Made by a program: the position numbers and the translations under genes. A stretch of 64,000 nt of DNA from Rubripirellula amarantea. Lineage in GTDB: Bacteria > Planctomycetota > Planctomycetia > Pirellulales > Pirellulaceae. Location: the NCBI RefSeq assembly GCF_007859865.1, contig NZ_SJPI01000002.1:1136721-1200720 (forward strand), given 5' to 3'. Position 1 is the stretch's first letter. Every line of letters begins with the position of its first letter. This document shows positions 34,252 through 55,176 of this stretch, in pieces. The notes under the pieces are model-generated. The model saw nothing but the letters and a program-made list of their open reading frames with translations. It searched no databases and had not been told where the DNA came from.

Positions 34252-34420
34252 GTTGTTGTCCCCGCCACACACCTGCAATGCTCCGCACATTGCGAAGAAT
34301 CCTGGAATTCAGATGGAAATAGCTTACTTGTGACACCACTGGATCACTAGCCGATGACAAGTTTGTGACAATTTTGCGGGCCATCGTCGCGAAACCAGGA
34401 TTCCGCCAAAATCTGCCCCA
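34252..34420. promoter_or_regulatory. Divergent promoter region for the giant protein and HTH regulator
   Basis: The 169-base gap lies between divergent start codons, so both promoters must fall here. Several AT-rich, TTGTGACA-like stretches are visible (34330-34370), which may be regulator sites. No exact consensus was assigned. Confidence 0.5.
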
Positions 34421-35216: not shown

Positions 35217-37484
35217 TTAACTTCGCTTTTTGCGTTGAAGATCCCTGAAACTGACTCGATCGCGTTTCGCAAGAGCGGCAACATCTGTCCCGAACAACAA
35301 CGCCCCCTGCATCGAAGCACCGACGGCACAACCAACCAAACAATCGAGCCAGTGGTTGTCGGGTTGTTCGGGGCGGGCTTTCCATTCGTCGACCGTTCGG
35401 CCGCGGCCTTCGGTTTTGACGAAGTATTCGGCGATGATTTGTTCAGCGAACATGCGGTGTTGTTCGGGGCGATCGCCGAAGATGGAAAGACATCCGTGGT
35501 CGCCCATCGCGACCGCGAGGCGTGCGTGCGTGAAGGACTTCCACCAGTTCGTGTCGTAGATGATGTGGCGGATCGCTCGCTTGCCGTTGATGGATGGAAT
35601 CCGCCAGTTCAGTCCCACGCGATCGCCGGGTCGGCGTTTGTATTCGCTGAATGGGTTTGACGAGGCACCGACGAAGCGACCGTGCGACGGTAGCAAGATC
35701 GACGCGTGCGGGCTTTGCCGGCAGAATTGGTAGACGACGTTGGTGGAGTGGCCCCAGTTCGCGTCGATCAAGCACCGGCCGATCTTCATGGCCGCGCCGT
35801 CGTCGCGTTGCCATTCGCGCCCGAGCAAGTCGGTGGTGAGCGAATCGAGGCCGGCGTAGATGCTGCCTTCGAGTCCCGTTCCATCGGTTGCGTTTGCCAA
35901 CGTGTGTCGTGCGTCGCGAAGCGTGAAGTGCGGGCGTTGTTGGTCGGGGTAGGTTCCGTAATCGACAACGTAGCCGGTGAAATCGTCTTCCCACGCGGCA
36001 ACGACGTAGAATAAAAGTTTGCCTTGCACGTCGATGAAGGCGGTGAGATGGTTGCCGGCGATGGGGACGGTTAGCCGCGGCATGTTGTTGATCTTGCCGG
36101 CGACCTGTTCCGGTGTGAGCTGGTCGGCGTCGACGGTCTCGGCAGGCAGCGGTTCGTTTTGGTACTCGGCGTAGAACGCAGCTTCGTCTTGGAGTTTGAG
36201 ATTCATCGCATGTTGGATCGCCGACAATTCGTCGTGGTTGCAGCGTTCTTTCCACGAGACCTCCGCGCCGGCGTCCATCGCTTCACGGTTTTGACGATAG
36301 AACTCGGTGCCGGCCGCTCCACCATCGCCGGCTCTTAATCCTTCGCTGCGAATCTCGGCGTATCGTTCCCACAGCGTTTTGTTGGTGGGGAACGAGTTGA
36401 CCATTCGCGTTCGCTCGCCGTTCCACTCGGGGTGTTTGTCGCGGTCAAGGATGTTGTCGGCCATGTCACCGGGGCGAATGACCGTGCAAGGCATGATGCC
36501 CGAGATCTTTTTGCCGGGGCCGGCGAGACCGAGCACCGCGCCGGCGAGGATGGCTTCGCGGTTCGCGCATTGCGAAAGCGAACGAGCAGACTCGTCGGTT
36601 TGCGGGTCGTCCAAAACCACCAAGGACGGCCGCACCGTCTTGCCATCCGGCCGTTTGAACTTCATGCCGCGGATGCGACCGGTGAGGCCGGCCACCTTGA
36701 TGATCGCTCCGCTCGCTTTGCTGCCGGCGATCGTTGGCAACACGACCTCTTTGGCCGTCCAACCGATTTGTGTTCGCTTGCCCTGGTAGAGCTGGCCGTT
36801 GGCGCGGTTCGCAATTCCATCCAACGCTTGGATTGGAAAGCAGACCTCGGGGTAGTCGGCCAATAGTAGATCATTGGCGTCGAGTTCCGTTTTGATCGAG
36901 TCGAGCATATCGCAAGCGTGACCTTCGTCGCTGCCAATCAGACAAACGAAGTCGCGGTAGCCGTTGAGCACCGCCCAAATGCACGCGACCTCGGCCAACG
37001 AACTTTTGCCGGATCCACGTGCCATGGCGAGTGAAAACAAACCGCCGCGAACGACCGCCTCTTCGATCTTGCGAATGACTTTGATGTGGTCCGGCGACCA
37101 CGAAAGATGAAACGTCAGCTTGAAATACGCCTCGCAGAAGAACTGAAAGCTGCTGGCGGCCTTCGTTTTTCTTTCGGCGTCCTCGACCACGGGCAGGTCG
37201 CCGATGTCACGGCCAGCCTGCGCGATCGCAGCGTTGCGTGATCGTGCCCGCTCTTTTGCGTCGGCATACGGGTCTTCGCTCGCCGGCGGTTTCGGTTTGT
37301 TTCGTTCTTCGAGTAGCCATTGGCTGAACCGGAGAAGATCGACGTGCTGACCGTCTCCGATGCGATTGCCGGCTCGCGTTCGATAGCGGTAGAGCTGCCG
37401 TTCGTTGATGACCTCACCGAGCGACGTGCTATTGAGCATCCGGCAGCACTCGCTCGGCTTCAAACGTCGGATGTCATTGGCCAC
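35217..37484 (-). CDS. Terminase large subunit with N-terminal HTH-like domain
   Basis: The 755-residue protein packages DNA into the prohead. Residues about 4-62 form a small HTH-like domain (RRLKPSECCRMLNSTSLGEV; QLYRYRTRAGNRIGDG), which may serve as the DNA-recognition part usually found in the small subunit. Then come a Walker A-like ARGSGKSS (about 155-162), Walker B (SLVVLDDPQTDE) and a nuclease domain with candidate acidic residues in TAFIDVQGKL, LIDANWGHS and NHWLDCLVG. The GTG at 37484 has AGGAG eight bases upstream and overlaps the upstream gene. It is the only intact copy: the duplicate 3' end lies 7 kb away. Confidence 0.9.
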   Translation of the reverse strand: MANDIRRLKPSECCRMLNSTSLGEVINERQLYRYRTRAGNRIGDGQHVDLLRFSQWLLEERNKPKPPASEDPYADAKERARSRNAAIAQAGRDIGDLPVVEDAERKTKAASSFQFFCEAYFKLTFHLSWSPDHIKVIRKIEEAVVRGGLFSLAMARGSGKSSLAEVACIWAVLNGYRDFVCLIGSDEGHACDMLDSIKTELDANDLLLADYPEVCFPIQALDGIANRANGQLYQGKRTQIGWTAKEVVLPTIAGSKASGAIIKVAGLTGRIRGMKFKRPDGKTVRPSLVVLDDPQTDESARSLSQCANREAILAGAVLGLAGPGKKISGIMPCTVIRPGDMADNILDRDKHPEWNGERTRMVNSFPTNKTLWERYAEIRSEGLRAGDGGAAGTEFYRQNREAMDAGAEVSWKERCNHDELSAIQHAMNLKLQDEAAFYAEYQNEPLPAETVDADQLTPEQVAGKINNMPRLTVPIAGNHLTAFIDVQGKLLFYVVAAWEDDFTGYVVDYGTYPDQQRPHFTLRDARHTLANATDGTGLEGSIYAGLDSLTTDLLGREWQRDDGAAMKIGRCLIDANWGHSTNVVYQFCRQSPHASILLPSHGRFVGASSNPFSEYKRRPGDRVGLNWRIPSINGKRAIRHIIYDTNWWKSFTHARLAVAMGDHGCLSIFGDRPEQHRMFAEQIIAEYFVKTEGRGRTVDEWKARPEQPDNHWLDCLVGCAVGASMQGALLFGTDVAALAKRDRVSFRDLQRKKRS

Positions 37485-37680
37485 GGTGCATCTCCTGCAA
37501 TTGCCATGCGGTGTAGTCGAGGACGCTGAGGGTTCCGTCGGCGTTGGTCGGTGCGCCGGCTTCGATATCGGCCTGGATGTGCTCGATCGAAACACGCCGT
37601 TGGGCCGCGCCGGAAAGAACCTGGGCGAGTTGTTCGACCGTCAATGCGTTGGGGCTGACGGACGGTTTCTTGTCTTCCAT
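37474..37680 (-). CDS. Small terminase-associated protein
   Basis: The 68-residue protein contains LTVEQLAQVLSGAAQRRVS and IQADIEAGAPTNADGTLSV, with a YTAWQLQEM ending. I recall the AGAPTNADG segment from planctomycete and other phages next to terminase. It overlaps the terminase GTG start, so the two are likely translated together. It is a candidate terminase small subunit or partner. Confidence 0.65.
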   Translation of the reverse strand: MEDKKPSVSPNALTVEQLAQVLSGAAQRRVSIEHIQADIEAGAPTNADGTLSVLDYTAWQLQEMHRGQ

Positions 37681-37929
37681 GACGGGCTCCATCGAAAGGA
37701 ATTGCGACACGGGCAACACGCCGGCGACTGTCGCAAGAATTGGCGTCGCCGGCATGGTTCGCCGCATGTTTCGCACGGCAAAACAGGGCCAAACGTGGCC
37801 GCGTGTGGGCGTGAAAAGAAAGCTGCGAATTACTGAAACATTGCTGCTTAGCTTCGCTTGAGGTGTCTCGAAACGCATGGCTCATGTGTGTCAACGAAAC
37901 GAATTCTTCACCCCTTCGGAGACACAAAC
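37681..37929. other. Divergent control region between terminase and small-gene block
   Basis: The gap holds the start of the minus-strand terminase operon and the leader of the first plus-strand gene. A perfect inverted repeat GCCGGCGAC/GTCGCCGGC (37720-37728 and 37745-37753) lies near its left end and is a candidate operator or terminator. Confidence 0.5.
37851..37929 (+). promoter_or_regulatory. Conserved leader, copy 1
   Basis: First of nine copies. It has CTTCGCTTGA, then CATGGCTCATGTGTGTCA starting 54 bases before the amidoligase ATG, then CGAAACG and a GGAG ribosome site. It matches the consensus closely. Confidence 0.8.
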
Positions 37930-38790
37930 ATGCACGCCAACGACATCGCCTTCGGCATCGAACTCGAAACCACCATGCCCGAAAACGACCCCACACCGAT
38001 CGGCGGCTACCACAACGGGTTGCCGGTTTCTTGGCTGCCGGCGGGTTGGAAAGCCGAACGCGATTCGAGCATCATGACGCTCGGGCGCGGCCGGAAGGGT
38101 TGCGAATTTGTATCTCCGGTCCTTCGGGGGTACGAAGGGTTGCAAAGCGTCATGACGGCGGTCGACGCCATCGCGGCCCGCGGCGGCCGGGTCAACTATT
38201 CGACCGGCATTCACGTAACGGTCAGCTTTGGCAACGACGCCGCGGCCCTTTCGCGACTCATTTCGCTGATCGGCAACCACGAACGGGCCATCTACGCTTC
38301 GACCGGCACACGACGCCGCGAACAAAACCGCTGGGCCAAACGGATCAAAGACTACGGCAACAAAGACGCCGCGAAACGCCAATGCGAATCGGACCGCTAC
38401 CACTTGCTCAACTTGACCCACCTTGCCCGCGGAAAACAACGCATTGAGATTCGGGCCTTCGCGGGCAGCCTCAACAAAGACAAAATCGCCGGCTACCTGC
38501 AACTCGTACTCGGCTTGGTAGAACTCGCTTTGAATAGCAAACGGTGCAGCGGCTGGGACTACGCCAAAAAGCCCGGCACCAAATCTTGCTGGGACCGACC
38601 GGGTGCCGGCGAAGGCGAAACGGAATTGAACCGGCTGTTCTACCGGCTCGGTTGGACGAAGGGTTGGTACAAGGGCGACCTTCGTAACAAACGGTTCGGC
38701 GAACTGACCGCCGGCGACCAAACCTGCGATTGGAAACCGGTCAAAAAGAAGCTTCTCGAAATGGCTCGCAAGTACGACCGGGCGGTTTAA
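37930..38790 (+). CDS. Amidoligase-like enzyme
   Basis: The 286-residue protein matches the amidoligase family (COOH-NH2 ligases with an ATP-grasp/glutamine-synthetase-like fold): IAFGIELETTM at the start, YSTGIHVTVSFG in the middle, the TRRREQNRWAKR active-site helix and IEIRAFAGSLN near residue 200. Such enzymes form amide bonds using ATP and occur in phages and predicted tagging or cell-wall-modifying systems. No glutamine amidotransferase partner is adjacent. The ATG lies after the conserved leader with its GGAG site. Earlier in-frame starts would lie inside that leader. Confidence 0.85.
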   Translation: MHANDIAFGIELETTMPENDPTPIGGYHNGLPVSWLPAGWKAERDSSIMTLGRGRKGCEFVSPVLRGYEGLQSVMTAVDAIAARGGRVNYSTGIHVTVSFGNDAAALSRLISLIGNHERAIYASTGTRRREQNRWAKRIKDYGNKDAAKRQCESDRYHLLNLTHLARGKQRIEIRAFAGSLNKDKIAGYLQLVLGLVELALNSKRCSGWDYAKKPGTKSCWDRPGAGEGETELNRLFYRLGWTKGWYKGDLRNKRFGELTAGDQTCDWKPVKKKLLEMARKYDRAV

Positions 38791-38814
38791 CCGCCGGCGG
38801 CTTGCCGCATCACC

Positions 38815-38850
38815 AACGCCGCGGTTTGCCACGCGGCGTTTCTTCGTTTT
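38815..38850 (+). terminator. Rho-independent terminator after amidoligase gene
   Basis: AACGCCGCG pairs with CGCGGCGTT across an eight-base loop and is followed by a T-rich tail (TCTTCGTTTT), 24 bases after the amidoligase stop. This isolates the gene as its own transcription unit. Confidence 0.75.
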
Positions 38851-38996
38851 GTCGGCCGACGGCGGGCAACGTGTCGGCCAAACGGCATAGGTAATAGGTA
38901 GGGGCCGACTGTTTCGGCCGGCCCGACACGCGGCGTTTGTCGGCCACGTGGGCGACATCAAAAAACATGGAAAAACCCTGCAAATTACTGCCGGGA

Positions 38997-39078
38997 TCGG
39001 CTTGCTGCGTCTCGAAACGCATGGCTCATGTGTGTCATCGCAAGACGGTTTTTCATTCACCCAAACGGAGAGACAAAC
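38997..39078 (+). promoter_or_regulatory. Conserved leader, copy 2
   Basis: Second copy: CGGCTTGCTGCGTCTCG, then the unchanged CATGGCTCATGTGTGTCA block starting 59 bases before the ATG, then a GGAG site. The CTTGA step is altered to CTTGC. Confidence 0.8.
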
Positions 39079-39339
39079 ATGACGGTTTCGCAATTGATTG
39101 AACTTCTCGAAGACTACCGCGAACAACACGGCGACGACTGCGAAGTGCGGTTGATGACGCAGCAAAACTGGCCCTTTGAAAACCGCATCGCCGGTTTGAC
39201 CAGCGGCGCGGAGATGAACGAAGGCGACGAAGACTTCGACGACCAAGACGTTGCCGATGACGCGATGGTCTACATCGTCGAAGGCGGACAGATCTGCTAC
39301 GGCAGCAAACGGGCTTGGGAAACTTGCCGCGATTGCTAG
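39079..39339 (+). CDS. Small conserved phage protein (block gene B)
   Basis: The 86-residue protein starts MTVSQLIELLEDYREQHGDD, then CEVRLMTQQNWPFENRIAGL. The 'L..LL....D..V....Q..WPfe' pattern resembles small phage proteins of unknown function. Its C-terminus is acidic and Cys-containing. It has its own leader copy. Confidence 0.7.
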   Translation: MTVSQLIELLEDYREQHGDDCEVRLMTQQNWPFENRIAGLTSGAEMNEGDEDFDDQDVADDAMVYIVEGGQICYGSKRAWETCRDC

Positions 39340-39356
39340 CCGCGGCCCGCGAAAAG

Positions 39357-39391
39357 AAGTTCGGAAAACATCTCGAATGTTTTCCGAACTT
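39357..39391 (+). repeat. Perfect 15-bp inverted repeat upstream of leader copy 3
   Basis: AAGTTCGGAAAACAT is followed, after CTCGA, by its exact reverse complement. It lies just after gene B and directly abuts leader copy 3. It could end the gene B transcript or be part of the leader control. Confidence 0.8.
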
Positions 39392-39472
39392 CGCTTGCTG
39401 TCACCGGCGACGCATGGCTCCTGTGTGTCACCGAAACGCATTTCATTTCCCTTCCGTAACGGAGACCCGAAC
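39388..39472 (+). promoter_or_regulatory. Conserved leader, copy 3
   Basis: Third copy: ACTTCGCTTGCTG, then CATGGCTCCTGTGTGTCA starting 60 bases before the ATG, then a GGAG site. One base differs in the core (CTC-C-TGTG). Confidence 0.8.
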
Positions 39473-39694
39473 ATGGCCAACGCAACCAACCGCCAACGCA
39501 TCAAAGCCGAATACACCGCCGCCCACGTCCGAGCGCTAACGCTTCTCGAAGACTTGCACCAACGCATCGAGGACACGCCGGCACCGACCGACGACGGGCC
39601 GGCGATCGGATGGGACGACGTTGGATCGCTGAAGCATCTTTGCGAACAACTTCAAGAATTGAAAAATCATTTCTCGCCGGCGGACGCCAACTAA
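39473..39694 (+). CDS. Small protein of unknown function (block gene C)
   Basis: The 73-residue protein (ALTLLEDLHQRIEDTPAPTD; GSLKHLCEQLQELKNHF) is mostly two helices around a Pro/Asp-rich turn. It resembles block gene F in length and helical layout, suggesting diverged duplicates. Own leader and a following terminator. Confidence 0.6.
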   Translation: MANATNRQRIKAEYTAAHVRALTLLEDLHQRIEDTPAPTDDGPAIGWDDVGSLKHLCEQLQELKNHFSPADAN

Positions 39695-39697
39695 CCA

Positions 39698-39753
39698 AGA
39701 CCACCGCGCCGGCGGCTGTCGCGAACGGAATCGCGGCGGGCGTCGGTCTTTTT
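39698..39753 (+). terminator. Terminator after block gene C
   Basis: A long imperfect hairpin (GACCACCGCGCCGGC with the downstream GCGGCGGGCGTCGGTC) ends in TTTTT right after the gene C stop, shortly before leader copy 4. Confidence 0.6.
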
Positions 39754-39777
39754 GAAAACATGTGAAATCATTCTCGA

Positions 39778-39863
39778 ACTTCGCTTGATGTGTTCCGCAC
39801 GACATGGCTCCATGTGCGTCGTCGAAACAACTTTTCAAAACCACCTCGAACGGAGACGCCACC
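39778..39863 (+). promoter_or_regulatory. Conserved leader, copy 4
   Basis: Fourth copy: ACTTCGCTTGATG, then CATGGCTCCATGTGCGTC starting 61 bases before the ATG, then a GGAG site. It carries the extended palindrome CATGG-CT-CCATG. Confidence 0.75.
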
Positions 39864-40163
39864 ATGGCAACCACCAACGAAACCCAAACGCCCGAAACCA
39901 CCATCCGCGCCGAGTTGGCGAAACTCGAATGGATGATTCCCGACGCCAAACGCGACCTCGCCAAAGCCGCCGAACGATTGGCCGCCCGCGGGATCGCGGC
40001 GGTCAAGGAATGCCACGCGATGATTGCCGAAGAACCATGCTCGATGGGTTGGACCGAGTTCGCCGAACAAGACGCCCGCCACGCCAACGAAGCGAAAGCA
40101 AAACTCACCGCGCTGTTTGAACGCCGCCAATTGCTGCAGTACTTGATCGACGAAAACGACTGA
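39864..40163 (+). CDS. Small helical protein (block gene D)
   Basis: The 99-residue protein (TTIRAELAKLEWMIPDAKRD; LAKAAERLAARGIAAVKECH; KLTALFERRQLLQYLIDEND) looks like a long helical hairpin with a Trp/Cys turn. No family recognised. It has its own leader and terminator. Confidence 0.65.
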   Translation: MATTNETQTPETTIRAELAKLEWMIPDAKRDLAKAAERLAARGIAAVKECHAMIAEEPCSMGWTEFAEQDARHANEAKAKLTALFERRQLLQYLIDEND

Positions 40164-40189
40164 CCGCCGGCGAGTTCGCCGCACCGCCA

Positions 40190-40230
40190 CACGCCGCGAC
40201 GTTCGCCCAACGCCGCGGCGTTTTCTTGTT
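40190..40230 (+). terminator. Terminator after block gene D
   Basis: ACGCCGCGACGTT pairs with AACGCCGCGGCGT over a five-base loop, then TTTTC. It lies about 27 bases after the gene D stop. Confidence 0.7.
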
Positions 40231-40333
40231 CGGGCATGGTTCGCCGGCGAGTTGAAACGACGCCACACGCCGCGTTTGTCGGCCACGTTGGCGACATCAA
40301 GAAACATTCAAAAACCCTGCGAATTGCTGCCGA

Positions 40334-40417
40334 ACTTCGCTTGAGCTGTTTGGAAACCCATGGCTCATGTGTGTCACCGAAACGGTTTTTCATTTCTTTC
40401 CACACGGAGACACACCC
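40334..40417 (+). promoter_or_regulatory. Conserved leader, copy 5
   Basis: Fifth copy: ACTTCGCTTGAGCTG, then CATGGCTCATGTGTGTCA starting 59 bases before the ATG, CCGAAACGG and a GGAG site. It is among the best matches to the consensus. Confidence 0.8.
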
Positions 40418-40696
40418 ATGCGAACCGCAACCCAAATCAACGGCCGCCGCCCTCGCCCCAACCGCCTCGAAGTTTTGCAAAAGCGCTACGCGGCGCGGCA
40501 ACAGCAAACAGCCAACTGCTGCTTGAAAGCCGCAACGCTTGACATGCTTTCGGAGCTGACCAAGTACGTCAACGACTTTGAACCCGAAGGCATCTACGCC
40601 CCCGAGGATGTCCAACGTGTCTATCCGGCTCTGCAACGTTTCTACAACGGGCTGATGGAATTGAACGCGGCATTTCGCGACGACATTGAGCGATAG
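40418..40696 (+). CDS. Small protein of unknown function (block gene E)
   Basis: The 92-residue protein (ATLDMLSELTKYVNDFEPEG; VYPALQRFYNGLMELNAAFR) is basic at the N-terminus and helical thereafter. No family recognised. It is bounded by its own leader and a large hairpin. Confidence 0.65.
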   Translation: MRTATQINGRRPRPNRLEVLQKRYAARQQQTANCCLKAATLDMLSELTKYVNDFEPEGIYAPEDVQRVYPALQRFYNGLMELNAAFRDDIER

Positions 40697-40710
40697 CCGG
40701 CAGCGGCGAA

Positions 40711-40765
40711 CGCCGGCGGTCGCGGTCATTTGAAAAACTTTTTGAATGATTGCCGACCGCCGGCA
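40711..40765 (+). terminator. Large hairpin after block gene E
   Basis: GCCGGCGGTCG pairs exactly with CGACCGCCGGC, with an inner TCATT/AATGA stem round AAAAACTTTTTG. It sits between the gene E stop and leader copy 6 and may be a terminator or control hairpin. Confidence 0.6.
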
Positions 40766-40766
40766 G

Positions 40767-40851
40767 ATTCCGCTTGATGCGTTCGCAAACGCATGGCTCA
40801 TGTGTGTCACCGCAACGGTTCTTTCCAACCCTTCCAAACGGAGACACACCC
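40767..40851 (+). promoter_or_regulatory. Conserved leader, copy 6
   Basis: Sixth copy: ATTCCGCTTGATG, then CATGGCTCATGTGTGTCA starting 60 bases before the ATG, CCGCAACGG and GGAG. Confidence 0.8.
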
Positions 40852-41073
40852 ATGGCAACCGCCACCCAAAGCCGCCCTTCGACCGCCGACGTTCTTTACG
40901 CCCAAACCTCGGCATTGCTTTTGATCGAACAATTACGCGACGCGGTCGCCAACATGCCGCTGGCCGACGCGGTTTCGCGACGCGGGCTGGCCGAAACATT
41001 CGGTGAACTGGACGACCTGCACGACGAAGTCGACGGGTTGCTGGCGAAGTTCCAAAAGAATTTCAAAGACTGA
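40852..41073 (+). CDS. Small protein of unknown function (block gene F)
   Basis: The 73-residue helical protein (ALLLIEQLRDAVANMPLADA; AETFGELDDLHDEVDGLLAK) is similar in length and layout to block gene C. No family recognised. Own leader. Confidence 0.65.
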   Translation: MATATQSRPSTADVLYAQTSALLLIEQLRDAVANMPLADAVSRRGLAETFGELDDLHDEVDGLLAKFQKNFKD

Positions 41074-41142
41074 ACTCGCCCGTGTGTCGCGAGTTATCGC
41101 AGCATTTCAGAAACATTGAAAAAGGCTGCGAAAAGCTGCCCG

Positions 41143-41235
41143 AACTCGCTTGAGATGTTTTCAAAACCATGGCTCATGTGTGTTAACGCCGAACGGCAAA
41201 ACCCTTTTTCAAACCCCTTTCTGAGAGACCAAACC
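41143..41235 (+). promoter_or_regulatory. Conserved leader, copy 7
   Basis: Seventh copy: ACTCGCTTGAGATG, then CATGGCTCATGTGTGTTA starting 68 bases before the ATG, the longest spacing of the set. The ribosome site is GAGAG. Confidence 0.75.
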
Positions 41236-41490
41236 ATGGCTTTGAACGAAACCCAAAAGACCGCGATCGCCAACCTTCGCACCGAGATGCAAAAGCTGGA
41301 CCCGGACGCATACCAACGTATCCGCGAAGACTTCTACCGAATCGCGGACAACCTCAAACCGCTCGCCGACGCCCTTGAAATGGCCGACGCCGACCTGGGG
41401 GCGAAGGCCGGCCCGCTTTTGGACGAACACTACATCTTCGCCCAAATGTACGACCTGCTTCGCCAAAGCAACCTCGGCGGGGTGGTTTAA
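41236..41490 (+). CDS. Small protein of unknown function (block gene G)
   Basis: The 84-residue helical protein (AIANLRTEMQKLDPDAYQRI; LKPLADALEMADADLGAKAG) shows no family motif. It has its own leader copy. Confidence 0.65.
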   Translation: MALNETQKTAIANLRTEMQKLDPDAYQRIREDFYRIADNLKPLADALEMADADLGAKAGPLLDEHYIFAQMYDLLRQSNLGGVV

Positions 41491-41650
41491 ACCGCCAGCC
41501 GCACGGACGCGGCACCGGCGGTCACGGCCCGCCGGTGTCGCCCGCTTGCCGGCATGTTCGGCAAATCATGCCGGCGAACAACTGCCGGCCACACGCGGCA
41601 ACGTCGCCGGCGAAACAAAACATCGAAAAACATTCCAAGAAGCTGCCGGT

Positions 41651-41740
41651 CTTCGCTTGAGCTGTTTGAAAAACCATGGCTCATGTGTGTCACCGCAACG
41701 CCGCGGGAAATAACCCACCCACGCACCGGAGAACGAAACC
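41651..41740 (+). promoter_or_regulatory. Conserved leader, copy 8
   Basis: Eighth copy: CTTCGCTTGAGCTG, then CATGGCTCATGTGTGTCA starting 66 bases before the ATG. The ribosome site is CGGAGAACG. Confidence 0.8.
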
Positions 41741-42007
41741 ATGGACTTTTCTTTTGAAGTTGAAAGCTACGCCGGCACCGTCTGGGTCAACGGACGCGAC
41801 GAGGGCTACTTCGTCACCTTCCACGGCCGCGAATGGGAACTGATCACCGAAGAGAAATACGCCGAACACGGTGACCCGAACCGGCACGTCACGTACGACT
41901 CCATCGGTATCAAACGGTCGGATTGCAGCGAAGCGTTTGACCGCTGGTACGACATGTTTCGCCGGCCGGTCCGCCGACGGGTGCCCCCGATCATGCGTTG
42001 GGTTTGA
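41741..42007 (+). CDS. Small protein of unknown function (block gene H)
   Basis: The 88-residue protein (FSFEVESYAGTVWVNGRDEG; YFVTFHGREWELITEEKYAE) is a mixed strand/helix protein, aromatic-rich with a basic end. No family recognised. Block genes I and J follow without a full leader copy. Confidence 0.65.
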   Translation: MDFSFEVESYAGTVWVNGRDEGYFVTFHGREWELITEEKYAEHGDPNRHVTYDSIGIKRSDCSEAFDRWYDMFRRPVRRRVPPIMRWV

Positions 42008-42123
42008 AAAGCCGAAACGCCGGCCCCTTTCTTCAGAAACCTCGGGCCGGCGTCGCGGCGGGTTGGTGCCCGCCGCCTGACGATGGCAGCCAACCACGAA
42101 TTATTCCAAACGGAGAGACGAAG

Positions 42124-42606
42124 ATGAAAAAGGCAGACGTAAAAATCGGCGGCGAGTACTTCGCGAAGGTTACCAACAAAAAAGTCACGGTACGGATCGA
42201 CGCGGAGAATTCCTCCGGCGGCTGGGACGCGACCAATTTGGCGACCAACAAAAAGGTCCGCATCAAAACCGCCGCCCGGCTTCAAGGGCCGGCCCGCGCG
42301 GTGACGACGCCGGCGGTCGGTGAAACGAAACGGGTGTTGAAGAAGAAAGCAAAAACCGAAACGCCCACCGGCGGCGAGAAAAAGCTTTCGTGCGTTAGAG
42401 CGGCTTTGCAGGTTTTGGAGACCGCCGGCGAACCGATGAACTCGCAAGAAATGATCACCGCCATGGTTGAACAAAACCTTTGGGAAAGCCCCGGCGGAAA
42501 GACGCCCCACGCGACGCTGTACTCGGCCATTTTGCGAGACCTCAAACGCGGCGACGAAAGCCGGTTTGTCAAAACCGAACGCGGCCGGTTCACGGTGCGA
42601 GCGTAG
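42124..42606 (+). CDS. HARE-HTH domain protein (block gene I)
   Basis: The 160-residue protein has an N-terminal strand-rich part (VKIGGEYFAKVTNKKVTVRI), a basic linker and a C-terminal winged-helix HARE-HTH domain (CVRAALQVLETAGEPMNSQE; LYSAILRDLKRGDESRFVKT; RGRFTVRA). HARE-HTH domains occur in RNA polymerase delta, restriction and modification proteins, and predicted modified-DNA sensors. A direct GGAG site precedes the ATG, but the CATGGCTCATG core is lost here. It may read DNA state or regulate the block. Confidence 0.8.
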   Translation: MKKADVKIGGEYFAKVTNKKVTVRIDAENSSGGWDATNLATNKKVRIKTAARLQGPARAVTTPAVGETKRVLKKKAKTETPTGGEKKLSCVRAALQVLETAGEPMNSQEMITAMVEQNLWESPGGKTPHATLYSAILRDLKRGDESRFVKTERGRFTVRA

Positions 42607-42618
42607 GAGGCCAGCAAA

Positions 42619-42849
42619 ATGTTCATTTGCGACGTCCGACAAATTGACGACCTCGACGAAGGGGAAACGGCCACGCCGGAACCCGACATGGGATACGAAC
42701 TGCGAACCATCGACGGTTCGCGATTTGAAACCGGCACGGTTGCCTCGATCGTTCGCCGCGGCGACGCCATCTTCGCGCGAACGACCGCCGGCGAAGAGTT
42801 CGCGGTAACCGGATCGGCCAGCCACGTGCTGGTTCCACTTTCTTTCTAG
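42619..42849 (+). CDS. Small protein of unknown function (block gene J)
   Basis: The 76-residue protein (MGYELRTIDGSRFETGTVAS; DAIFARTTAGEEFAVTGSAS) is beta-rich and acidic. It starts 12 bases after gene I, so I and J form one transcript. A terminator follows. Confidence 0.6.
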   Translation: MFICDVRQIDDLDEGETATPEPDMGYELRTIDGSRFETGTVASIVRRGDAIFARTTAGEEFAVTGSASHVLVPLSF

Positions 42850-42871
42850 CCGGCGAACGCTTCGCCACACT

Positions 42872-42903
42872 CGCCCGACTTTGACCACGGTCGGGCGTTT
42901 TCT
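42872..42903 (+). terminator. Terminator after block gene J
   Basis: CGCCCGAC and GTCGGGCG pair over a ten-base loop and end in TTTTCTC. It ends the H-I-J segment before leader copy 9. Confidence 0.75.
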
Positions 42904-43012
42904 CGTTGGTGCGGTAACCAACCGCCGCACCGGAGCGATGCGACACGGGGCGTTTGTCGCGGCCGTTTGCCGCCGGCGAAAAACATTCGAGAACTTTTGG
43001 AATGTTTGCCGG

Positions 43013-43098
43013 ACTTCGCTTGCTGCCGGCGAAACGTCATGGCTCCATGTGTCACACGCAAACCGCGAAACGATTCCTTTCCCAAACGGAGAAACGAC
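43013..43098 (+). promoter_or_regulatory. Conserved leader, copy 9
   Basis: Ninth copy: ACTTCGCTTGCTG, then CATGGCTCCATGTGTCAC starting 61 bases before the ATG, then a GGAG site. Upstream, AAACATTC and GAATGTTT form a hairpin (about 42980-43008). Confidence 0.75.
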
Positions 43099-43338
43099 AT
43101 GAAGAACGACAACATTCAAACCCTCGCCCCGCGGCCGATCGAGCCGGCCGCGGCCTATGACAACGCTCACCAAATTTCACGCGACCTTTTGCAACACATC
43201 GAATTGCAACTCGATCGCATGTTGAAACCCGACAACAAAGCGCTGCGATGGACGCACGTCCGTGCTTTGAACTTGATCAACGCCCAGCTTTCCGAAGTCG
43301 CCGCCCTGGTCGACGAAACCAACAACGCTCGCAACTAA
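43099..43338 (+). CDS. Small protein of unknown function (block gene K)
   Basis: The 79-residue protein (AHQISRDLLQHIELQLDRML; WTHVRALNLINAQLSEVAAL) is helical. No family recognised. It shares one transcript with the next two genes (10- and 3-base gaps). Confidence 0.6.
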   Translation: MKNDNIQTLAPRPIEPAAAYDNAHQISRDLLQHIELQLDRMLKPDNKALRWTHVRALNLINAQLSEVAALVDETNNARN

Positions 43339-43348
43339 GGCGACTGCT

Positions 43349-43579
43349 ATGCCAACCATCCCCAAGGCGGGCGACCGCGTCCGCCTGGTTTCGATGACCG
43401 ACGACCCCGACCCGGTTCCCGCCGGCACCACCGGCACGGTCGTCGGCGTGTATCCACAACGAGGTTGGATGCAAGTCGATGTCGATTGGGACAGCGGCCG
43501 GTCATTGATGCTTTCCATTCCACCGGATGTTGTCGCCATGATCGACGACACGCCGACAACTCAACGCCACGGAGATTGA
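43349..43579 (+). CDS. DUF4314-like protein (block gene L)
   Basis: The 76-residue protein (GDRVRLVSMTDDPDPVPAG; TTGTVVGVYPQRGWMQVDVD; WDSGRSLMLSIPPDVVAM) matches the DUF4314 pattern, a small SH3-like protein common in phages and plasmids. Function unknown. Confidence 0.85.
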   Translation: MPTIPKAGDRVRLVSMTDDPDPVPAGTTGTVVGVYPQRGWMQVDVDWDSGRSLMLSIPPDVVAMIDDTPTTQRHGD

Positions 43580-43582
43580 TCC

Positions 43583-43903
43583 ATGTCCACAAGAGCCATC
43601 CTCGCCATCCGGTTGCCGGACGAAACCATCGTCGCAACTTACCTGCACTTCGACGGCTACCCTGACCACGTGATGCCGATTCTGACAACCGGCTACGTCG
43701 ATCCCGACGAAGCCATCGAATTGATCCAGGCCGGCGAGATTCGATCGCTTTTGCCTCGGCCGGCGTTGCCGGAGTATTTTGAGACCAGCCGGCAAACCAA
43801 CGAACTGAAATCCGCAGCGGAACTGCCGGCGTTGGCTCGATATTTGAACGCCGAGCATGTTTACCTGATGAACGAAAATGGTTGGACGCATCAGAAAGCT
43901 TGA
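43583..43903 (+). CDS. Small conserved phage protein (block gene M)
   Basis: The 106-residue protein (MSTRAILAIRLPDETIVATY; LHFDGYPDHVMPIL) begins with a pattern I recall from small phage proteins ('STR..I......G....iYvH.DGYp'). Function unknown. It converges on the methyltransferase gene with ten bases between the stops. Confidence 0.75.
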   Translation: MSTRAILAIRLPDETIVATYLHFDGYPDHVMPILTTGYVDPDEAIELIQAGEIRSLLPRPALPEYFETSRQTNELKSAAELPALARYLNAEHVYLMNENGWTHQKA

Positions 43904-43912
43904 CACCGTCGC

Positions 43913-45223
43913 TCATCGCATATTCTCCTCGCGAGCGCCGACCGGGATCGGCGACTCGCCGGTGCGTTCGAGTACGGCTTTCTTGCCGGTGAAGCGTTGG
44001 AAGCGATCGACGATCACGTCGCAGTACGGCGGATCGAGTTCCATCAAGAACGCCTTGCGCCCGATCTGTTCGGCTCCGATCAAGGTCGAGCCGCTACCGC
44101 CGAACAAATCGAGCACGTTGTCGCCCTTGCGTGACGAATACAGCATCGCCTTGACCGCCAGTTCGGCGGGCTTGCCGGTGAGATGTTCCAACTGTTGCGG
44201 CGGAATCTTTTTCACATGCCACAGATCGGTTGCGTTGTTCGGCCCGAAGTACTTGTGTCCGGCCCCTTCACGCCAACCGTAGAACGCCCACTCGTGAGCC
44301 CCCATGAAGTCCTTTCGCGTCATCACGGGATGCATCTTGTCCCAAATGATCGCTTGCGAAAAATACAGCCCGTTCGATGAAAGCACCGGCGGGTAGTTCG
44401 CAATGTTCGAGAACCCACCCCAGATGTAAAAGCACCGGCCGGGTTCCAGGACGCGAGCGATGTTGCCGAACCAGGCTTTCAACAGCCGGTCAAACTCATC
44501 GTCGGACACAAAGTCGTTTTCAAGTGGCCGATCCTTCGCCCGCATCTTCTTTGGGCCCTCTTTCGTCTTGCCCTTGCCGGCCTCGAACGAACTATTGCCG
44601 GCCGCGATCGCGTTTTTGCTTCGCGGTTCGACTTTCACGTTGTACGGCGGGTCGGTATTGCATAATTGAATCTTTGCGCCGGCCAAAAGTTTGTCGAGGT
44701 CTTCGACGCTGGTCGAATCGCCGCACATCAATCGGTGGTCACCGAGGATCCAAATGTCGCCGCGCTGCGTGATCGCTTCGTCGGGCGGTTCGGGAACGTC
44801 GTCGGGATCGGTCAATCCCTGACCGACGCCGGGGTCGAGCAACTTCGCCAGTTCGTCGGAATCAAACCCGAGCAACTCACAGTCGAAACCGCTGTCTTGC
44901 AACGCACCGATCTCAAGCGGCAGCAATTCAAAATCCCACTCCGCGTTTTCGCCGGTGCGGTTGTCGGCAATCCGGTACGCACGAACCGCCTCGGGTTCCA
45001 TGTCAATCGCGACGTGAACCGGGACTTCGGTTAGGTTCAAAACCTTGGCAGCTTTGAATCGCGTGTGGCCGACGATGATGACGCCGGCCGTGTCGACAAC
45101 GATCGGTTGGCGAAAACCGAACTCGTTGATGCTTTGCACGACGTCGGCGACCGCGTCGTCGTTGATGCGAGGATTGTTTTCGTAAGGCTTGATCCGATCA
45201 AGCGTCCACATTTCGACCTGCAT
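43913..45223 (-). CDS. ParB-N domain DNA methyltransferase
   Basis: The 436-residue protein starts with a ParB/Srx-like domain (about 1-95: KPYENNPRINDDAVADVVQS; VGHTRFKAAKVLNL) and continues with an amino-methyltransferase of the N4/N6 type. DPPY (about 191-194) precedes DLFGGSGST (near 385), the beta-class motif order. Such ParB-fused enzymes occur in many phages and may act without a restriction partner, to protect phage DNA. ATG at 45223 has AAGGA eight bases upstream and is preferred over the ATG at 45241. Confidence 0.9.
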   Translation of the reverse strand: MQVEMWTLDRIKPYENNPRINDDAVADVVQSINEFGFRQPIVVDTAGVIIVGHTRFKAAKVLNLTEVPVHVAIDMEPEAVRAYRIADNRTGENAEWDFELLPLEIGALQDSGFDCELLGFDSDELAKLLDPGVGQGLTDPDDVPEPPDEAITQRGDIWILGDHRLMCGDSTSVEDLDKLLAGAKIQLCNTDPPYNVKVEPRSKNAIAAGNSSFEAGKGKTKEGPKKMRAKDRPLENDFVSDDEFDRLLKAWFGNIARVLEPGRCFYIWGGFSNIANYPPVLSSNGLYFSQAIIWDKMHPVMTRKDFMGAHEWAFYGWREGAGHKYFGPNNATDLWHVKKIPPQQLEHLTGKPAELAVKAMLYSSRKGDNVLDLFGGSGSTLIGAEQIGRKAFLMELDPPYCDVIVDRFQRFTGKKAVLERTGESPIPVGAREENMR

Positions 45224-45337
45224 GGCAGAGTCCTTTTCCAAAGGGGAAGAAACGGAAAAGGGTCGGTCGCTGGGTGGTTGGTTAGATGTTTGGGTGGTTG
45301 GCTTCGTTGAATCGGTCGTGATTTTGACGGGATGTAA
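45224..45337. other. Spacer upstream of the methyltransferase gene
   Basis: This short gap contains GGTTGGTTAG- and GGGTGGTTGG-like repeats (45270-45305). It probably holds the methyltransferase promoter, or the 3' end of the cargo sigma gene transcript. Confidence 0.3.
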
Positions 45338-46585
45338 TTACGGACGAATGCGGTCGAACCTCCGCTGAATTAACTTGCCGATTGCGGCCGTTGGAGCGGT
45401 TGCGATCGCGGTTTCATAAAACCCGATCGCAATCTGCGGCTGTCCGCATCTGAAATGCAAGTCAGCGGATACCGCGGACCACATGTATGATCCGGCTAGC
45501 CAACTCGGTGGTCGAAACCGGTTTAGAAACTCGAGTCCCAACGCGGGGCCGTCGTTCTCCGCGATCGCGAGTGCGTGATTCAAACGATGAACGGGAACAT
45601 CAACGAAGCTCGCAAGTACCGAATAGTTTTTGACGATATGATCCCAACGAGTCTCCGCAAACGAAGGTGACAAACAGTGGGCGGCAGCAATCCCGGCTTC
45701 ACAGTGATAACGACTGAAATGTTCGCCGGCGGATGACTTCTCGAGCCAAAGCATTCCCTGCGAAATCAACTTTCGGTCCCACTTGGTTCGATCTTGTTCC
45801 TCAAGCAAAAGCAAACCGCCGGTGTGATCCTGACGGCCATTCAGACGAGCGGCATTGAACAGCATCAGAGCAATCAAAGCCGACGTCTCAGGGTGGTCGC
45901 CGTCGCGGTGGCTCGCGAGAACCAATGCGAGCCGAATTGCCTCGTTGCATAGTTCGATCCGAATCGAACTTTCGGCATCGACCGATAGGTATCCTTCGGT
46001 GAATAGCAGATAGATTACTCGCTGGACCGAGGGCATTCGGATCGTGAATTCGTCGGTCGTCAAGTCAACGTCTGCGAGTCTTGTTTGACGCAGACTCGTT
46101 TTCGCTCGCGAGATTCTCTTGTAGATGCTTTCTTCATTGGCAAATAATCGGACCGCAATCTCCTTCACGCTGAAACCACAAAGGGTCTTGAGCGTGAAGG
46201 CCAGACGAGACTCCTCAGGCACGACGTCGTCGCAACATAAAAACAGCATGCGAAGCAGACACCTATTGTGTTCGTCATCGTCGGTGCTGCCACCCGAATG
46301 ATTGGCGTCGATTGTCTTCGCGTAATCTTCTGCCAGTAGTTGTCGTCGTCGATTCGTCTTCCGCAGATCGCCGAGCAACTGATTTCGGGCGACTCGATAA
46401 AGCCAGGCCGATGGGTTGTCGGGAGAGCCGTGGAGCGGCCATTGTTCCACTGCTGTAAGCATCGCAGCTTGAACCGCGTCCTCGACATCCACGAGATGCC
46501 GGATGCCAAGGTCGCAGGTGAGAATCGCAACGAGTCTTGCGTGTTCGTGCCGGAAAGAATCTTCGCCGAGCGGTGTCGATGTCAT
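45338..46585 (-). CDS. ECF-type RNA polymerase sigma factor (DUF6596-like)
   Basis: The 415-residue protein has sigma region 2 (LVDVEDAVQAAMLTAVEQWP; PSAWLYRVARNQLLGDLRKT) and region 4 (FSVKEIAVRLFANEESIYKR). A long helical C-terminal domain follows, with LLFTEGYLSVDAESSIR and ALIALMLFNAARLNGRQD, as in the SigF/DUF6596 group of ECF factors. The start overlaps the YCII gene stop by four bases. This pairing is common in bacterial chromosomes, so it looks like host-type cargo inside the prophage. Confidence 0.85.
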   Translation of the reverse strand: MTSTPLGEDSFRHEHARLVAILTCDLGIRHLVDVEDAVQAAMLTAVEQWPLHGSPDNPSAWLYRVARNQLLGDLRKTNRRRQLLAEDYAKTIDANHSGGSTDDDEHNRCLLRMLFLCCDDVVPEESRLAFTLKTLCGFSVKEIAVRLFANEESIYKRISRAKTSLRQTRLADVDLTTDEFTIRMPSVQRVIYLLFTEGYLSVDAESSIRIELCNEAIRLALVLASHRDGDHPETSALIALMLFNAARLNGRQDHTGGLLLLEEQDRTKWDRKLISQGMLWLEKSSAGEHFSRYHCEAGIAAAHCLSPSFAETRWDHIVKNYSVLASFVDVPVHRLNHALAIAENDGPALGLEFLNRFRPPSWLAGSYMWSAVSADLHFRCGQPQIAIGFYETAIATAPTAAIGKLIQRRFDRIRP

Positions 46586-46926
46586 CCCTGATGGATCTCT
46601 CGAACCTCCACGCTGGAACCGGGCATCATGGTTCCCGGACTTTCCTGAGCAACCTGCATTGCTTCGGCGAGCGACTCTGCTTCAACGATCATGAAGCCAC
46701 CCGCAATTTCTTTGACTTCGACGAACGGGCCATCGGTTTTGCCTTCGGCGGTGACCACGGCTCCCGTCCCAAGCTTGCCTCCCATGTCGATGATGTTTTT
46801 TTCAAACTTTTCTCGCCATTGGTTGAAGGCTGCGTACATCTGCTCCATTTCAGACGGTGATGGGCTCGTTTGGGATTCGCCGGCTGGGGCACTCCGCTGA
46901 ATGCATAGGTAAAGTTTCTTGGTCAT
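46582..46926 (-). CDS. YCII/DGPF-domain protein
   Basis: The 114-residue protein (KLYLCIQRSAPAG; GGKLGTGAVVTAEGKTDGPF; KEIAGGFMIVEAESLAEAMQ) is a YCII-related protein with the TDGPF signature. Such proteins often precede ECF sigma genes of the neighbour's type, as here. Function unknown; an accessory to the sigma factor is commonly suggested. Confidence 0.9.
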   Translation of the reverse strand: MTKKLYLCIQRSAPAGESQTSPSPSEMEQMYAAFNQWREKFEKNIIDMGGKLGTGAVVTAEGKTDGPFVEVKEIAGGFMIVEAESLAEAMQVAQESPGTMMPGSSVEVREIHQG

Positions 46927-54371: not shown

Positions 54372-54971
54372 TTAGTTTTCGAGCCAGTCCGCTTGACCAA
54401 AGTGGTCGCGAATCACCTCGACAGCAGCCGCCATCCGGCGACGAGAGATGCCGAGTTCGCGCCCTGCTTCAGCCCGCGAACAAGTCATCAACCGGCGAGC
54501 GATCGTGCGGTAGCCCCGCGGCAACGTGCGGATCAAATGCTCGACGCCCTCGGTCATGTCCATCAACTCGAACACGTCATTCGTTTCACCAAGCGTCCGA
54601 CGATCTTTGTCGTCGATCCCCAGCGATCGAAACATTTCTTCATGCGTTCCATCGACGGTCTCCACGACCTCGTCGGTGGACTCCATTCCCATGCCGGCTG
54701 GCGGACGGGATTTCATCCGATTGGTTTCCCGGATCAGTTTGGCGATGCAGTTGCGGATCAGCATGTTCACGAAAACGTCGTGGTCGCCACGTTGCGGATC
54801 GAACTGGTCAACATGTTCCAAAACATGCAGCAAGAACTCCTGCCGCAGATCTTCTTTCTGCACGTTGCCTTTAAACTCGGGCCGAAACATCACCAGCGAG
54901 GCAACTCGCTCGGTCATGTCCATGGCATAGGCGAAAAGTTCCGGATGAATTTCTTCGATGGTCGAAGCCAT
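54372..54971 (-). CDS. Phage-encoded sigma-70-like factor
   Basis: The 199-residue protein has a sigma region 2-like block (VQKEDLRQEFLLHVLEHVDQ; MLIRNCIAKLIRETNR) and a C-terminal region 4-like HTH (LPRGYRTIARRLMTCSRAEA; GRELGISRRRMAAAVEV). It lacks a recognisable region 1.1 or 3. ATG at 54971 follows GGAGGA with a six-base gap; an upstream in-frame ATG at 54998 is less well placed. It may direct RNA polymerase to the phage promoters in this window. It could instead be an HTH regulator of sigma descent. Confidence 0.75.
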   Translation of the reverse strand: MASTIEEIHPELFAYAMDMTERVASLVMFRPEFKGNVQKEDLRQEFLLHVLEHVDQFDPQRGDHDVFVNMLIRNCIAKLIRETNRMKSRPPAGMGMESTDEVVETVDGTHEEMFRSLGIDDKDRRTLGETNDVFELMDMTEGVEHLIRTLPRGYRTIARRLMTCSRAEAGRELGISRRRMAAAVEVIRDHFGQADWLEN

Positions 54972-55176
54972 TGCGTATTCCTCCGGCTGGAAGATCACAC
55001 GAACGCCGCCACAATCACCGCCGCAAAAGAACTGTGTCGTGATTCCGAATCACGTTTGAACACAGGCGACGGCGAGGCGAACCATTCACGTCCTCTCAGC
55101 CGAGAACATGGCCAGACAACTTCTGTCCGCTGAAGACAAAGCGTGTCCGCGAGACAAATTCGTTTTTCTGATCCAG
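54972..55176. other. Spacer upstream of the sigma-like gene
   Basis: The 205-base gap between the sigma-like start and the next minus-strand stop holds the sigma promoter region. No repeat from the other two families was recognised here. Confidence 0.4.

What the first reader, a model, noticed from the sequence alone, without database searches (positions are those of the whole stretch)
37851..43098. Nine-copy leader preceding a block of small opposite-strand phage genes
Seen: nine plus-strand copies of a leader built from CTTCGCTTGA, a 16-20 base gap, CATGGCTCATGTGTGTCA, CGAAACG, and a GGAG ribosome site, 54-68 bases before the start codon. Genes A-H and K each have a copy, while genes I, J, L and M follow on in transcripts. 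Changes inside the core keep its palindromic nature (CATG-GCT-CATG to CATGG-CT-CCATG). Known parallel: start-associated sequences upstream of many genes in cluster K mycobacteriophages. Inference: a phage-specific promoter, operator or translation leader shared by many separate units, more than ordinary operon design would need. I know of no description of this element.
Basis: partly seen in the sequence, partly recalled or inferred. Interest (0 to 1): 0.88.

Follow-up and report, generated by a model that had tools for sequence, protein, structure and literature searches.

The report
Repeated promoter-like leader in Pirellulaceae prophages
A prophage in a planctomycete bacterium carries the same promoter-like DNA stretch in front of nine separate gene units, and the same stretch recurs in related viruses of that bacterial family, which suggests a viral gene-control element for which I found no description.

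Summary
Nine plus-strand copies lie at 37855-43056, each 54-68 bp before a start codon. One detail is wrong: the gap between the two boxes is fixed (GCTTG-N15-CATGGCT), not 16-20. The element is larger than described: phased A-tracts, box 1 CGCTTG, 15 bp, box 2 CATGGCTCATGTGTG. It occurs in 54 of 241 genomes of the host's family (reversed pattern: 3 of 241). 228 non-redundant copies stand before 17 gene families, and 239 of 241 loci with a copy hold phage genes. The leader shows no conserved RNA structure. Best reading: a phage-specific promoter that starts separate transcripts. TTG near -35, 17-bp spacing, extended TG and upstream A-tracts fit a sigma70-type layout, but TATAAT is missing, so a phage factor is probably needed. 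That factor is not identified. A HARE-HTH protein of the block fits best, a divergent phage sigma factor less well; co-occurrence does not decide, since the terminase co-occurs nearly as often. I found no description in ten paper searches. Repeated phage promoters and operators are a known kind; this is a new variant. A type II hammerhead ribozyme lies before the HARE-HTH gene here and in 7 of 8 related loci tested.

The parts
37855..37893 (+). leader copy 1 (box 1 to end of core), before amidoligase gene 37930-38790
38999..39037 (+). leader copy 2, before 39079-39339 (86 aa)
39392..39430 (+). leader copy 3 (CCTG variant), before 39473-39694 (73 aa)
39782..39821 (+). leader copy 4 (1-bp insertion variant), before 39864-40163 (99 aa)
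40338..40376 (+). leader copy 5, before 40418-40696 (92 aa)
40771..40809 (+). leader copy 6, before 40852-41073 (73 aa)
41147..41185 (+). leader copy 7, before 41236-41490 (84 aa)
41654..41692 (+). leader copy 8, before 41741-42007 (88 aa), then the hammerhead, the HARE-HTH gene and 42619-42849
43017..43056 (+). leader copy 9 (1-bp insertion variant), before 43099-43338 (79 aa), 43349-43579 (DUF4314), 43583-43903
37817..37854 (+). upstream A-tract region of copy 1 (the other copies have a comparable stretch about 40 bp long)
   Evidence: AT peaks at -35, -25 and -14 before box 1 over 217 standard-spacing copies
42010..42095 (+). type II hammerhead ribozyme (RF02276) between gene H and the HARE-HTH gene
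   Evidence: 45.3 bits, gathering 37; above gathering in 7 of 8 related loci
42124..42606 (+). HARE-HTH (PF05066) protein, 160 aa; leading candidate trans-factor
   Evidence: Pfam 7.8e-15; only hit of profile A2 in the host genome at E 1e-3
38815..38840 (+). terminator-like hairpin after the amidoligase gene
   Evidence: pattern match; 22 such sites in the stretch, 14.0 +/- 3.9 expected
40209..40222 (+). terminator-like hairpin after gene D (stop at 40163), weak (5 pairs)
   Evidence: pattern match only
42872..42897 (+). terminator-like hairpin after 42619-42849
   Evidence: pattern match only
43913..45241 (-). ParB-N / N6_N4 DNA methyltransferase flanking the block
54372..54998 (-). divergent phage sigma70-family protein, second candidate factor
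   Evidence: Sigma70_r2 3.7e-6, above cut-off; PHROG_1740 2.8e-10; AF2 model pLDDT 88, pTM 0.49, nearest PDB chains largely sigma factors but query TM 0.32 or less
35217..37595 (-). terminase large subunit, divergent neighbour of leader 1

Best explanation
The leader is a phage-specific promoter module, recognised as DNA. Each copy starts its own transcript, so the plus-strand block is a row of separately transcribed accessory units between two minus-strand operons. Reading inferred from sequence: +1 near the A that ends the core (offset 38 from the first base of box 1), a -35 element TTGa/c at the end of box 1, 17 bp, an extended TG, then CTCATGTGTG in place of TATAAT, with upstream A-tracts near -73, -63 and -52 (a weaker one near -41) that could bind the alpha C-terminal domains of RNA polymerase. 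Because the -10 is not canonical and the element was seen only in phage context, a phage-encoded factor probably allows or controls its use. I think the block's own HARE-HTH protein is the most likely one (about 0.35), the phage sigma factor next (about 0.2); the rest is unknown. Shown: the copies, the fixed spacing, conservation, phage context, lack of RNA structure. Inferred: that it is a promoter, the start site, the factor.
For: Nine copies, all pointing to a gene with its own ribosome site. In 54 of 241 family genomes, 23 of 68 genera; reversed pattern in 3 genomes. Weight matrix: 744 hits in 241 loci (overlapping loci counted) against 0 in the reversed control; 239 of the 241 hold at least one of 13 phage marker families, the other two (L255, L267) have the copy within 320 bp of the locus edge. 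228 non-redundant copies; 217 have an SD-preceded ORF, 98% at 50-78 bp, in 17 families after profile merging, 13 of them with two or more copies. Box spacing: 139 of 145. The A-tracts at -35 and -25 lie outside the matrix used for finding copies, so they are not selected for; peak distances are 10, 11 and 11, and 11 of 5000 column permutations reach the periodic power. No sigma70-consensus promoter in 37500-44000, 1.5 expected. HARE-HTH: profile hits in 49 of 54 motif genomes (in G090 only the second, motif-less group); four genomes scored HARE-positive and motif-negative (G002, G006, G015, G073) have divergent copies; found with the motif in G005, G017, G028 and G030, where no relative of this terminase was found at 1e-60; 19 invariant columns in 30 sequences; 10 of 217 copies lie directly before a HARE gene.
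Against: No transcript data; the start site is a guess from sequence. The -10 region matches no promoter class I know. Terminator-like sites in the block are 22 against 14.0 +/- 3.9 expected, a weak excess, and only three were placed after units. The best Fourier period of the A-tracts is 11.75, not 10.5. A 1-bp insertion inside box 2 is tolerated, odd for a -10 element. Copies were found by matching the boxes and are related by descent, so box conservation is partly selected and counts are not independent. HARE is missing near the motif in G193:C637, G029:C4 and G004:1.62 Mb, and a second HARE group has no motif. The terminase co-occurs in 47 of 54 (HARE 49, sigma 46), so co-occurrence does not identify the factor.
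Confidence: 0.66

Rival explanations
1. The core is an operator: a phage repressor (HARE-HTH or another) binds it and silences the block, for example in the lysogen, while the promoter is ordinary or lies elsewhere in the leader.
For: Asymmetric repeated sites oriented with transcription are known for mycobacteriophage operators and stoperators (passages). Box 1 and box 2 are weak direct repeats 23 bp apart, correlation 0.47 against 0.24 for the next shift, as for two monomers of one protein. A 1-bp insertion between GGCT and ATGTGT is tolerated.
Against: No other conserved promoter element is seen in the leader and no sigma70-consensus site in the block. The A-tracts keep a fixed distance to the boxes, as promoter parts do. 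No repressor of a known family turned up among the window proteins that I scanned, but many small ones were not scanned.
Confidence: 0.2
2. The leader is the promoter of the phage's own sigma70-family protein (54372-54998): box 1 is its -35, box 2 its -10.
For: The protein belongs to the sigma70 family by Pfam and PHROG; the predicted fold agrees weakly. Strong homologues (E <= 1e-30) are in 46 of 54 motif genomes and, in the clusters whose distances I read off, lie 5-13 kb away on the opposite strand: 3 of 3 in G048, 4 of 4 in G159, 3 of 3 in G036. Box spacing suits a two-domain sigma.
Against: Identity to the window copy is 17-38% in 34 of 36 relatives and the recognition helix varies, while the motif hardly does (the motif was the search key). 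No sigma beside sak4 in G059, which has motif, HARE and methyltransferase, and none in the stretches read at G004:4.66 Mb, G004:6.88 Mb and the second G066:C331 cluster. G161 has the sigma but no motif in the 19.9 kb on the usual side. 17 of 63 sigma genomes lack the motif, many of them fragmented. In G210:C108 sigma and motif share a strand.
Confidence: 0.2
3. A translational or RNA leader: the conserved stretch acts in the mRNA on translation or stability.
For: Distance to the start codon is fairly tight, 50-78 bp in 98%.
Against: Consensus fold -0.87 kcal/mol with no compensatory pair in 27 leaders; the most conserved parts lie far from the ribosome site; A-tracts and box 1 would have to be transcribed from a promoter not found.
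Confidence: 0.05
4. A recombination tag: repeated leaders are homology for swapping gene cassettes, like an integron array, and regulation is secondary.
For: Unit content differs between close relatives (e.g. unit 5: 92 aa in the window, an unlike 75 aa in L081), and in L081 similarity of 93.9% through leader 7 ends 10 bp after the core.
Against: No stable fold as in attC sites; fixed box spacing and A-tracts are not needed for homology; copies are kept in loci that show only one or two.
Confidence: 0.05

Closest known systems
Start-associated sequences and extended SAS of cluster K mycobacteriophages (PMC3203893 and PMC12699233, passages read)
   Same: Repeated, mostly one orientation, upstream of many unrelated non-structural genes of a phage family, nearly absent from the host; function unproven.
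   Different: SAS is 13 bp, 3-7 bp from the start codon and overlaps the ribosome site; ESAS is a pair of 17-bp inverted repeats with variable spacer. Here two different boxes with a fixed 15-bp gap, 50-78 bp from the start codon, with upstream A-tracts.
Cluster A mycobacteriophage operators and stoperators (PMC9283540, passages read)
   Same: Asymmetric repeated DNA sites of a temperate phage, oriented with transcription.
   Different: Single 13-bp sites in promoters and intergenic gaps bound by an immunity repressor; here a two-box element tied to gene starts, no such repressor recognised.
T4 middle promoters with a MotA box, and promoters read by phage sigma factors (recalled, no call)
   Same: A phage-specific box replaces one element of a sigma70 promoter and is repeated before many genes.
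   Different: In T4 the -35 is replaced and TATAAT kept; here a -35-like TTG is kept and the -10 is unlike TATAAT. Factor unknown.
SPbeta repeated element SPBRE of Bacillus phage SPbeta (recalled, no call)
   Same: A repeated element in promoter regions of a prophage, thought to be regulatory.
   Different: Different host; sequence and layout not compared here.
HARE-HTH domain proteins (PF05066; kinship with the RNA polymerase delta subunit recalled; suggested readers of modified DNA, PMC11037411, one passage read)
   Same: The block encodes one, above Pfam's cut-off.
   Different: The passage says nothing of phage promoter control; the listing for HARE-HTH with phage showed none either.

Membership tests
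sigma70-consensus promoter | -35 TTGACA-like | tested here: inconclusive
   TTG nearly invariant, then A in 76% of copies; the last two bases do not fit CA.
sigma70-consensus promoter | -10 TATAAT-like at 16-18 bp | tested here: not met
   CTCATG at that distance; 0 consensus promoters in 37500-44000.
sigma70-consensus promoter | transcript starts downstream | not testable with these tools
   No RNA data.
sigma54 promoter | GG at -24 and GC at -12, ten bp apart | tested here: not met
   By inspection of the consensus: TGGC present, GC at the required distance absent (defining feature recalled).
SAS | 13-bp GGGATAGGAGCCC within 3-7 bp of the start codon | tested here: not met
   Leader sequences against the description in PMC3203893.
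ESAS | pair of imperfect 17-bp inverted repeats | tested here: not met
   By inspection: only CATG-N3-CATG; the rest is asymmetric.
cis-regulatory RNA | conserved, covarying secondary structure or Rfam family | tested here: not met
   3 predicted pairs, 0 compensatory; no Rfam match on the leaders.
phage single-subunit RNA polymerase promoter | T7-like polymerase gene in the prophage | tested here: inconclusive
   PF00940 finds nothing in the host genome, but its controls did not ring either.
type II hammerhead ribozyme (42010-42095) | score over the Rfam gathering threshold | tested here: met
   45.3 versus 37 bits.
type II hammerhead ribozyme (42010-42095) | self-cleavage | not testable with these tools
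   Needs an in vitro assay.

The most novel reading that the evidence does not exclude
The block is an epigenetically read regulon: the neighbouring ParB-N6/N4 methyltransferase modifies the paired CATG sites of the core, the HARE-HTH protein reads the modified core and opens or closes a non-canonical promoter at every unit, and a hammerhead ribozyme sets the amount of the HARE mRNA. Motif, reader, writer and ribozyme would form one portable control module of Pirellulaceae phages. Untested: the enzyme's target, dependence on modification, and binding.
Probability: 0.07. Interest if true: 0.88.

Novelty: new variant of a known kind. Interest (0 to 1): 0.62.

Why it matters
It gives a searchable signature of a large group of Pirellulaceae phages that has no close relative among the isolated phages searched, and it outlines a regulon of 17 gene families, most without a known function. 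A promoter that keeps a -35-like TTG and upstream A-tracts but drops TATAAT would be a concrete test case for how phages redirect RNA polymerase in planctomycetes. The candidate factors are few and named, so one or two experiments could decide.

Tried and rejected
Considered and set aside: the cargo sigma factor with DUF6596 at 45338-46585 as reader of the motif, because tblastn at 1e-8 found it in none of 40 related loci (not all of these loci cover its neighbourhood). T7-like polymerase: nothing found, control silent. RNA leader: no structure. Defence function of the block: no PADLOC match for nine block proteins; NCBIfam names none of seven. Isolated phages: amidoligase (16 records) and terminase (112 records) relatives in INPHARED are all under 60% identity. 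Of 54 stretches with the strict pattern in GTDB genomes, 51 are labelled as planctomycetes; Leifsonia L219, a Proteobacteria MAG L241 and a Bacillota MAG L244 score under 20 bits with the matrix and look like chance. Papers: ten searches. No listing showed a paper on this element; the only hit for Planctomycetes with prophage and promoter motif (PMC9208149, listing only) concerns insertion sequences; six names for planctomycete phages gave no paper. The library lacks most subscription journals.

Limits of counts: loci overlap, so raw hit counts are redundant; the 228 copies are those under 85% identity over 260 bp. Loci were fetched because they match the motif, so motif conservation is partly selected; one search starts from box 2 alone but in the same loci. 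The genome pattern search allows 3 mismatches and no insertion, so 54 of 241 is a lower bound (searches show misses). A first clustering gave 19 gene families; profile merging gave 17. Of the ten remaining HARE-positive, motif-negative genomes, three have HARE at a contig end, four hold only the second HARE group in the stretch read, and three (G095, G099, G158) were not examined. The sigma cut-off of 1e-30 was chosen after seeing a bimodal list. Genome lists for one search were typed from the tables. Sigma-to-motif distances were read by eye.
Full report
WHERE. The host family is Pirellulaceae: genome G171, listed as same genus as the window's genome, has contigs of the lengths of Rubripirellula obstinata CECT 8602 (93,769 and 112,243 bases), which NCBI places in Pirellulaceae. 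The plus-strand block at 37.85-43.9 kb lies between two minus-strand phage regions: head and packaging genes with the terminase (35217-37595), portal and head protease on one side; a ParB-methyltransferase (43913-45241), a cargo sigma factor, primase-polymerase, helicase, RusA-like resolvase, Sak4-like annealing protein, a sigma70-family protein (54372-54998) and a serine integrase (58239-59807) near tRNA-Met on the other.

WHAT IS THERE. Between GCTTG and CATGGCT there are always 15 bp. Two copies (39803, 43038) have one extra base after CATGGCTC.

MORE THAN CHANCE. The core gives 7 hits against 0.07 expected in the window. In the host genome close matches are confined to this block, apart from two 2-mismatch hits. 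In 241 genomes of the family the two-box pattern with up to 3 mismatches occurs in 54, the reversed pattern in 3; many genomes hold clusters of same-strand copies. A strict form occurs in 90 stretches of IMG/VR and in 54 stretches of 84,980 GTDB species genomes, 51 of them labelled as planctomycetes such as Rhodopirellula, Rubripirellula, Aporhodopirellula, Roseiconus and Stieleria; the other three fail the weight matrix.

ANATOMY. A matrix built from 152 hits in the window and 40 fetched loci, run over 1.16 Mb on both strands, gave 172 hits over 5 bits and none in the reversed control. With the insertion variant included, 744 hits over 20 bits lie in 241 loci, again none in the control. From 228 copies that differ by at least 15% over 260 bp (217 with standard spacing) the consensus reads: A-tracts around -35, -25 and -14 before box 1, then CTT CGCTTGaTGTGTT, GAAACG, CATGGCTCATGTGTGTCA, CGCAAA. 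The matrix starts 15 bp before box 1, so the two distal A-tracts were not selected for. Box 2 alone, searched in the window and 40 long loci, has GCTTG at gap 15 in 139 of 145 cases, at gap 16 in one, and in the remaining five a TTG at the same place. ATGTGT follows CATGGCT after one base in 329 of 336 cases and after two in 7. Start codons follow 50-78 bp after the core start in 98% of the 217 copies with a Shine-Dalgarno-preceded ORF; the ORFs fall into 17 families, 13 with two or more copies. Within the phage the leaders resemble each other over about 155 bp; in L081 similarity of 93.9% runs through leader 7 and ends 10 bp after the core, where a diverged gene follows.

PHAGE CONTEXT. Of the 241 loci with a copy, 239 hold at least one of 13 phage gene families used as markers; in the other two the copy lies at the locus edge. 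In the loci read I saw no copy before a host gene. A host regulator with no host targets is unlikely; a phage-encoded one is expected (inference).

FUNCTION. RNA-level action is not supported: 27 leaders give -0.87 kcal/mol and no compensatory pair. For DNA-level action the fixed spacing, the upstream A-tracts at distances of 10, 11 and 11 bp (11 of 5000 permutations as periodic, best period 11.75), placement before each unit and the absence of a sigma70-consensus promoter in the block fit a promoter. Terminator-like hairpins follow three units, but such sites are only 22 against 14.0 +/- 3.9 expected. If +1 is the A at the end of the core, TTGa lies at -35, TG at -15/-14, and the A-tracts near -73, -63 and -52. 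This register is my inference; the -10 hexamer would be CTCATG, which a sigma70 would hardly use unaided.

WHICH FACTOR. Sigma: the 208-aa protein is a sigma70 relative by Pfam and PHROG; its AF2 model (pLDDT 88, pTM 0.49) has mainly sigma factors as PDB neighbours, but with one hit under E 0.001 and query TM-scores of 0.32 or less. Strong homologues are in 46 of 54 motif genomes, 5-13 kb away on the opposite strand in the clusters I read (G048 3 of 3, G159 4 of 4, G036 3 of 3); in G210:C108 they share a strand. Against it: identity of 17-38% in 34 of 36 relatives and a variable recognition helix, absence beside sak4 in G059, and G161 with the sigma but no motif in 19.9 kb. HARE-HTH: profile hits in 49 of 54 motif genomes, in G090 only of a second, motif-less group; of 14 HARE genomes scored motif-negative, four have divergent copies (G002, G006, G015, G073), seven more are contig ends or the second group, three were not examined. 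In G005, G017, G028 and G030 no relative of this terminase was found at 1e-60, yet motif and HARE are together. The host genome has no other hit of this profile. Against it: HARE is missing at G193:C637, G029:C4 and G004:1.62 Mb. The terminase co-occurs in 47 of 54; Fisher p is 1.8e-32 for HARE, 7.4e-27 for sigma and 4.6e-25 for terminase, so co-occurrence alone does not point to the factor.

COMPARISON. SAS and ESAS of cluster K phages (passages), operators and stoperators (passages) and, from memory, T4 middle promoters and SPBRE of SPbeta are the nearest kinds. None that I compared matches in layout. A 2025 paper still states that the role of SAS and ESAS needs experimental verification (passages). 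The kind, a phage-specific repeated promoter or operator, is known; the element, its hosts and its architecture are new as far as ten paper searches reach.

SIDE FINDING IN THE BLOCK. A type II hammerhead ribozyme sits between gene H and the HARE-HTH gene and scores above Rfam's threshold in 7 of 8 related loci (not in L061). Unit 8 therefore presumably carries a promoter, a gene, a ribozyme and the candidate regulator in one transcript.

Noticed in passing
window 42010-42095 (+): Type II hammerhead ribozyme (RF02276, 45.3 bits) just upstream of the HARE-HTH gene; above threshold in 7 of 8 related loci tested (L067, L323, L314, L072, L088, L073, L074; not L061).
   Followed up: partly
window 45338-46926 (-): Sigma factor with DUF6596 and a small adjacent ORF (46582-46926) between the methyltransferase and the primase; tblastn at 1e-8 found the sigma factor in none of 40 related loci, so it looks like cargo.
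   Followed up: partly
window 27829-28371 (-): A second, broken partial copy of the terminase C-terminus (87% identical, 3 in-frame stops) beside the 1960-aa gene, suggesting an insertion or duplication.
   Followed up: no
window 28408-34290 (-): A 1960-aa protein with GEVED and dockerin domains encoded inside the prophage between portal and terminase genes.
   Followed up: no
L347, L349, L350, L351, L355, L358, L359, L361: A second group of HARE-HTH proteins sits beside serine recombinase genes with no copy of the leader in the 8-12 kb read.
   Followed up: partly
window 39.4-41.7 kb compared with L081 and L085: Unit content differs between close relatives: e.g. a 75-aa gene in place of the 92-aa gene in L081, and 53-aa and 217-aa genes in place of the 73-aa and 99-aa genes in L085.
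   Followed up: partly
window 59804-60289 (-): DUF2924 protein next to the serine integrase; relatives of the pair lie next to each other in L060 and L087.
   Followed up: no
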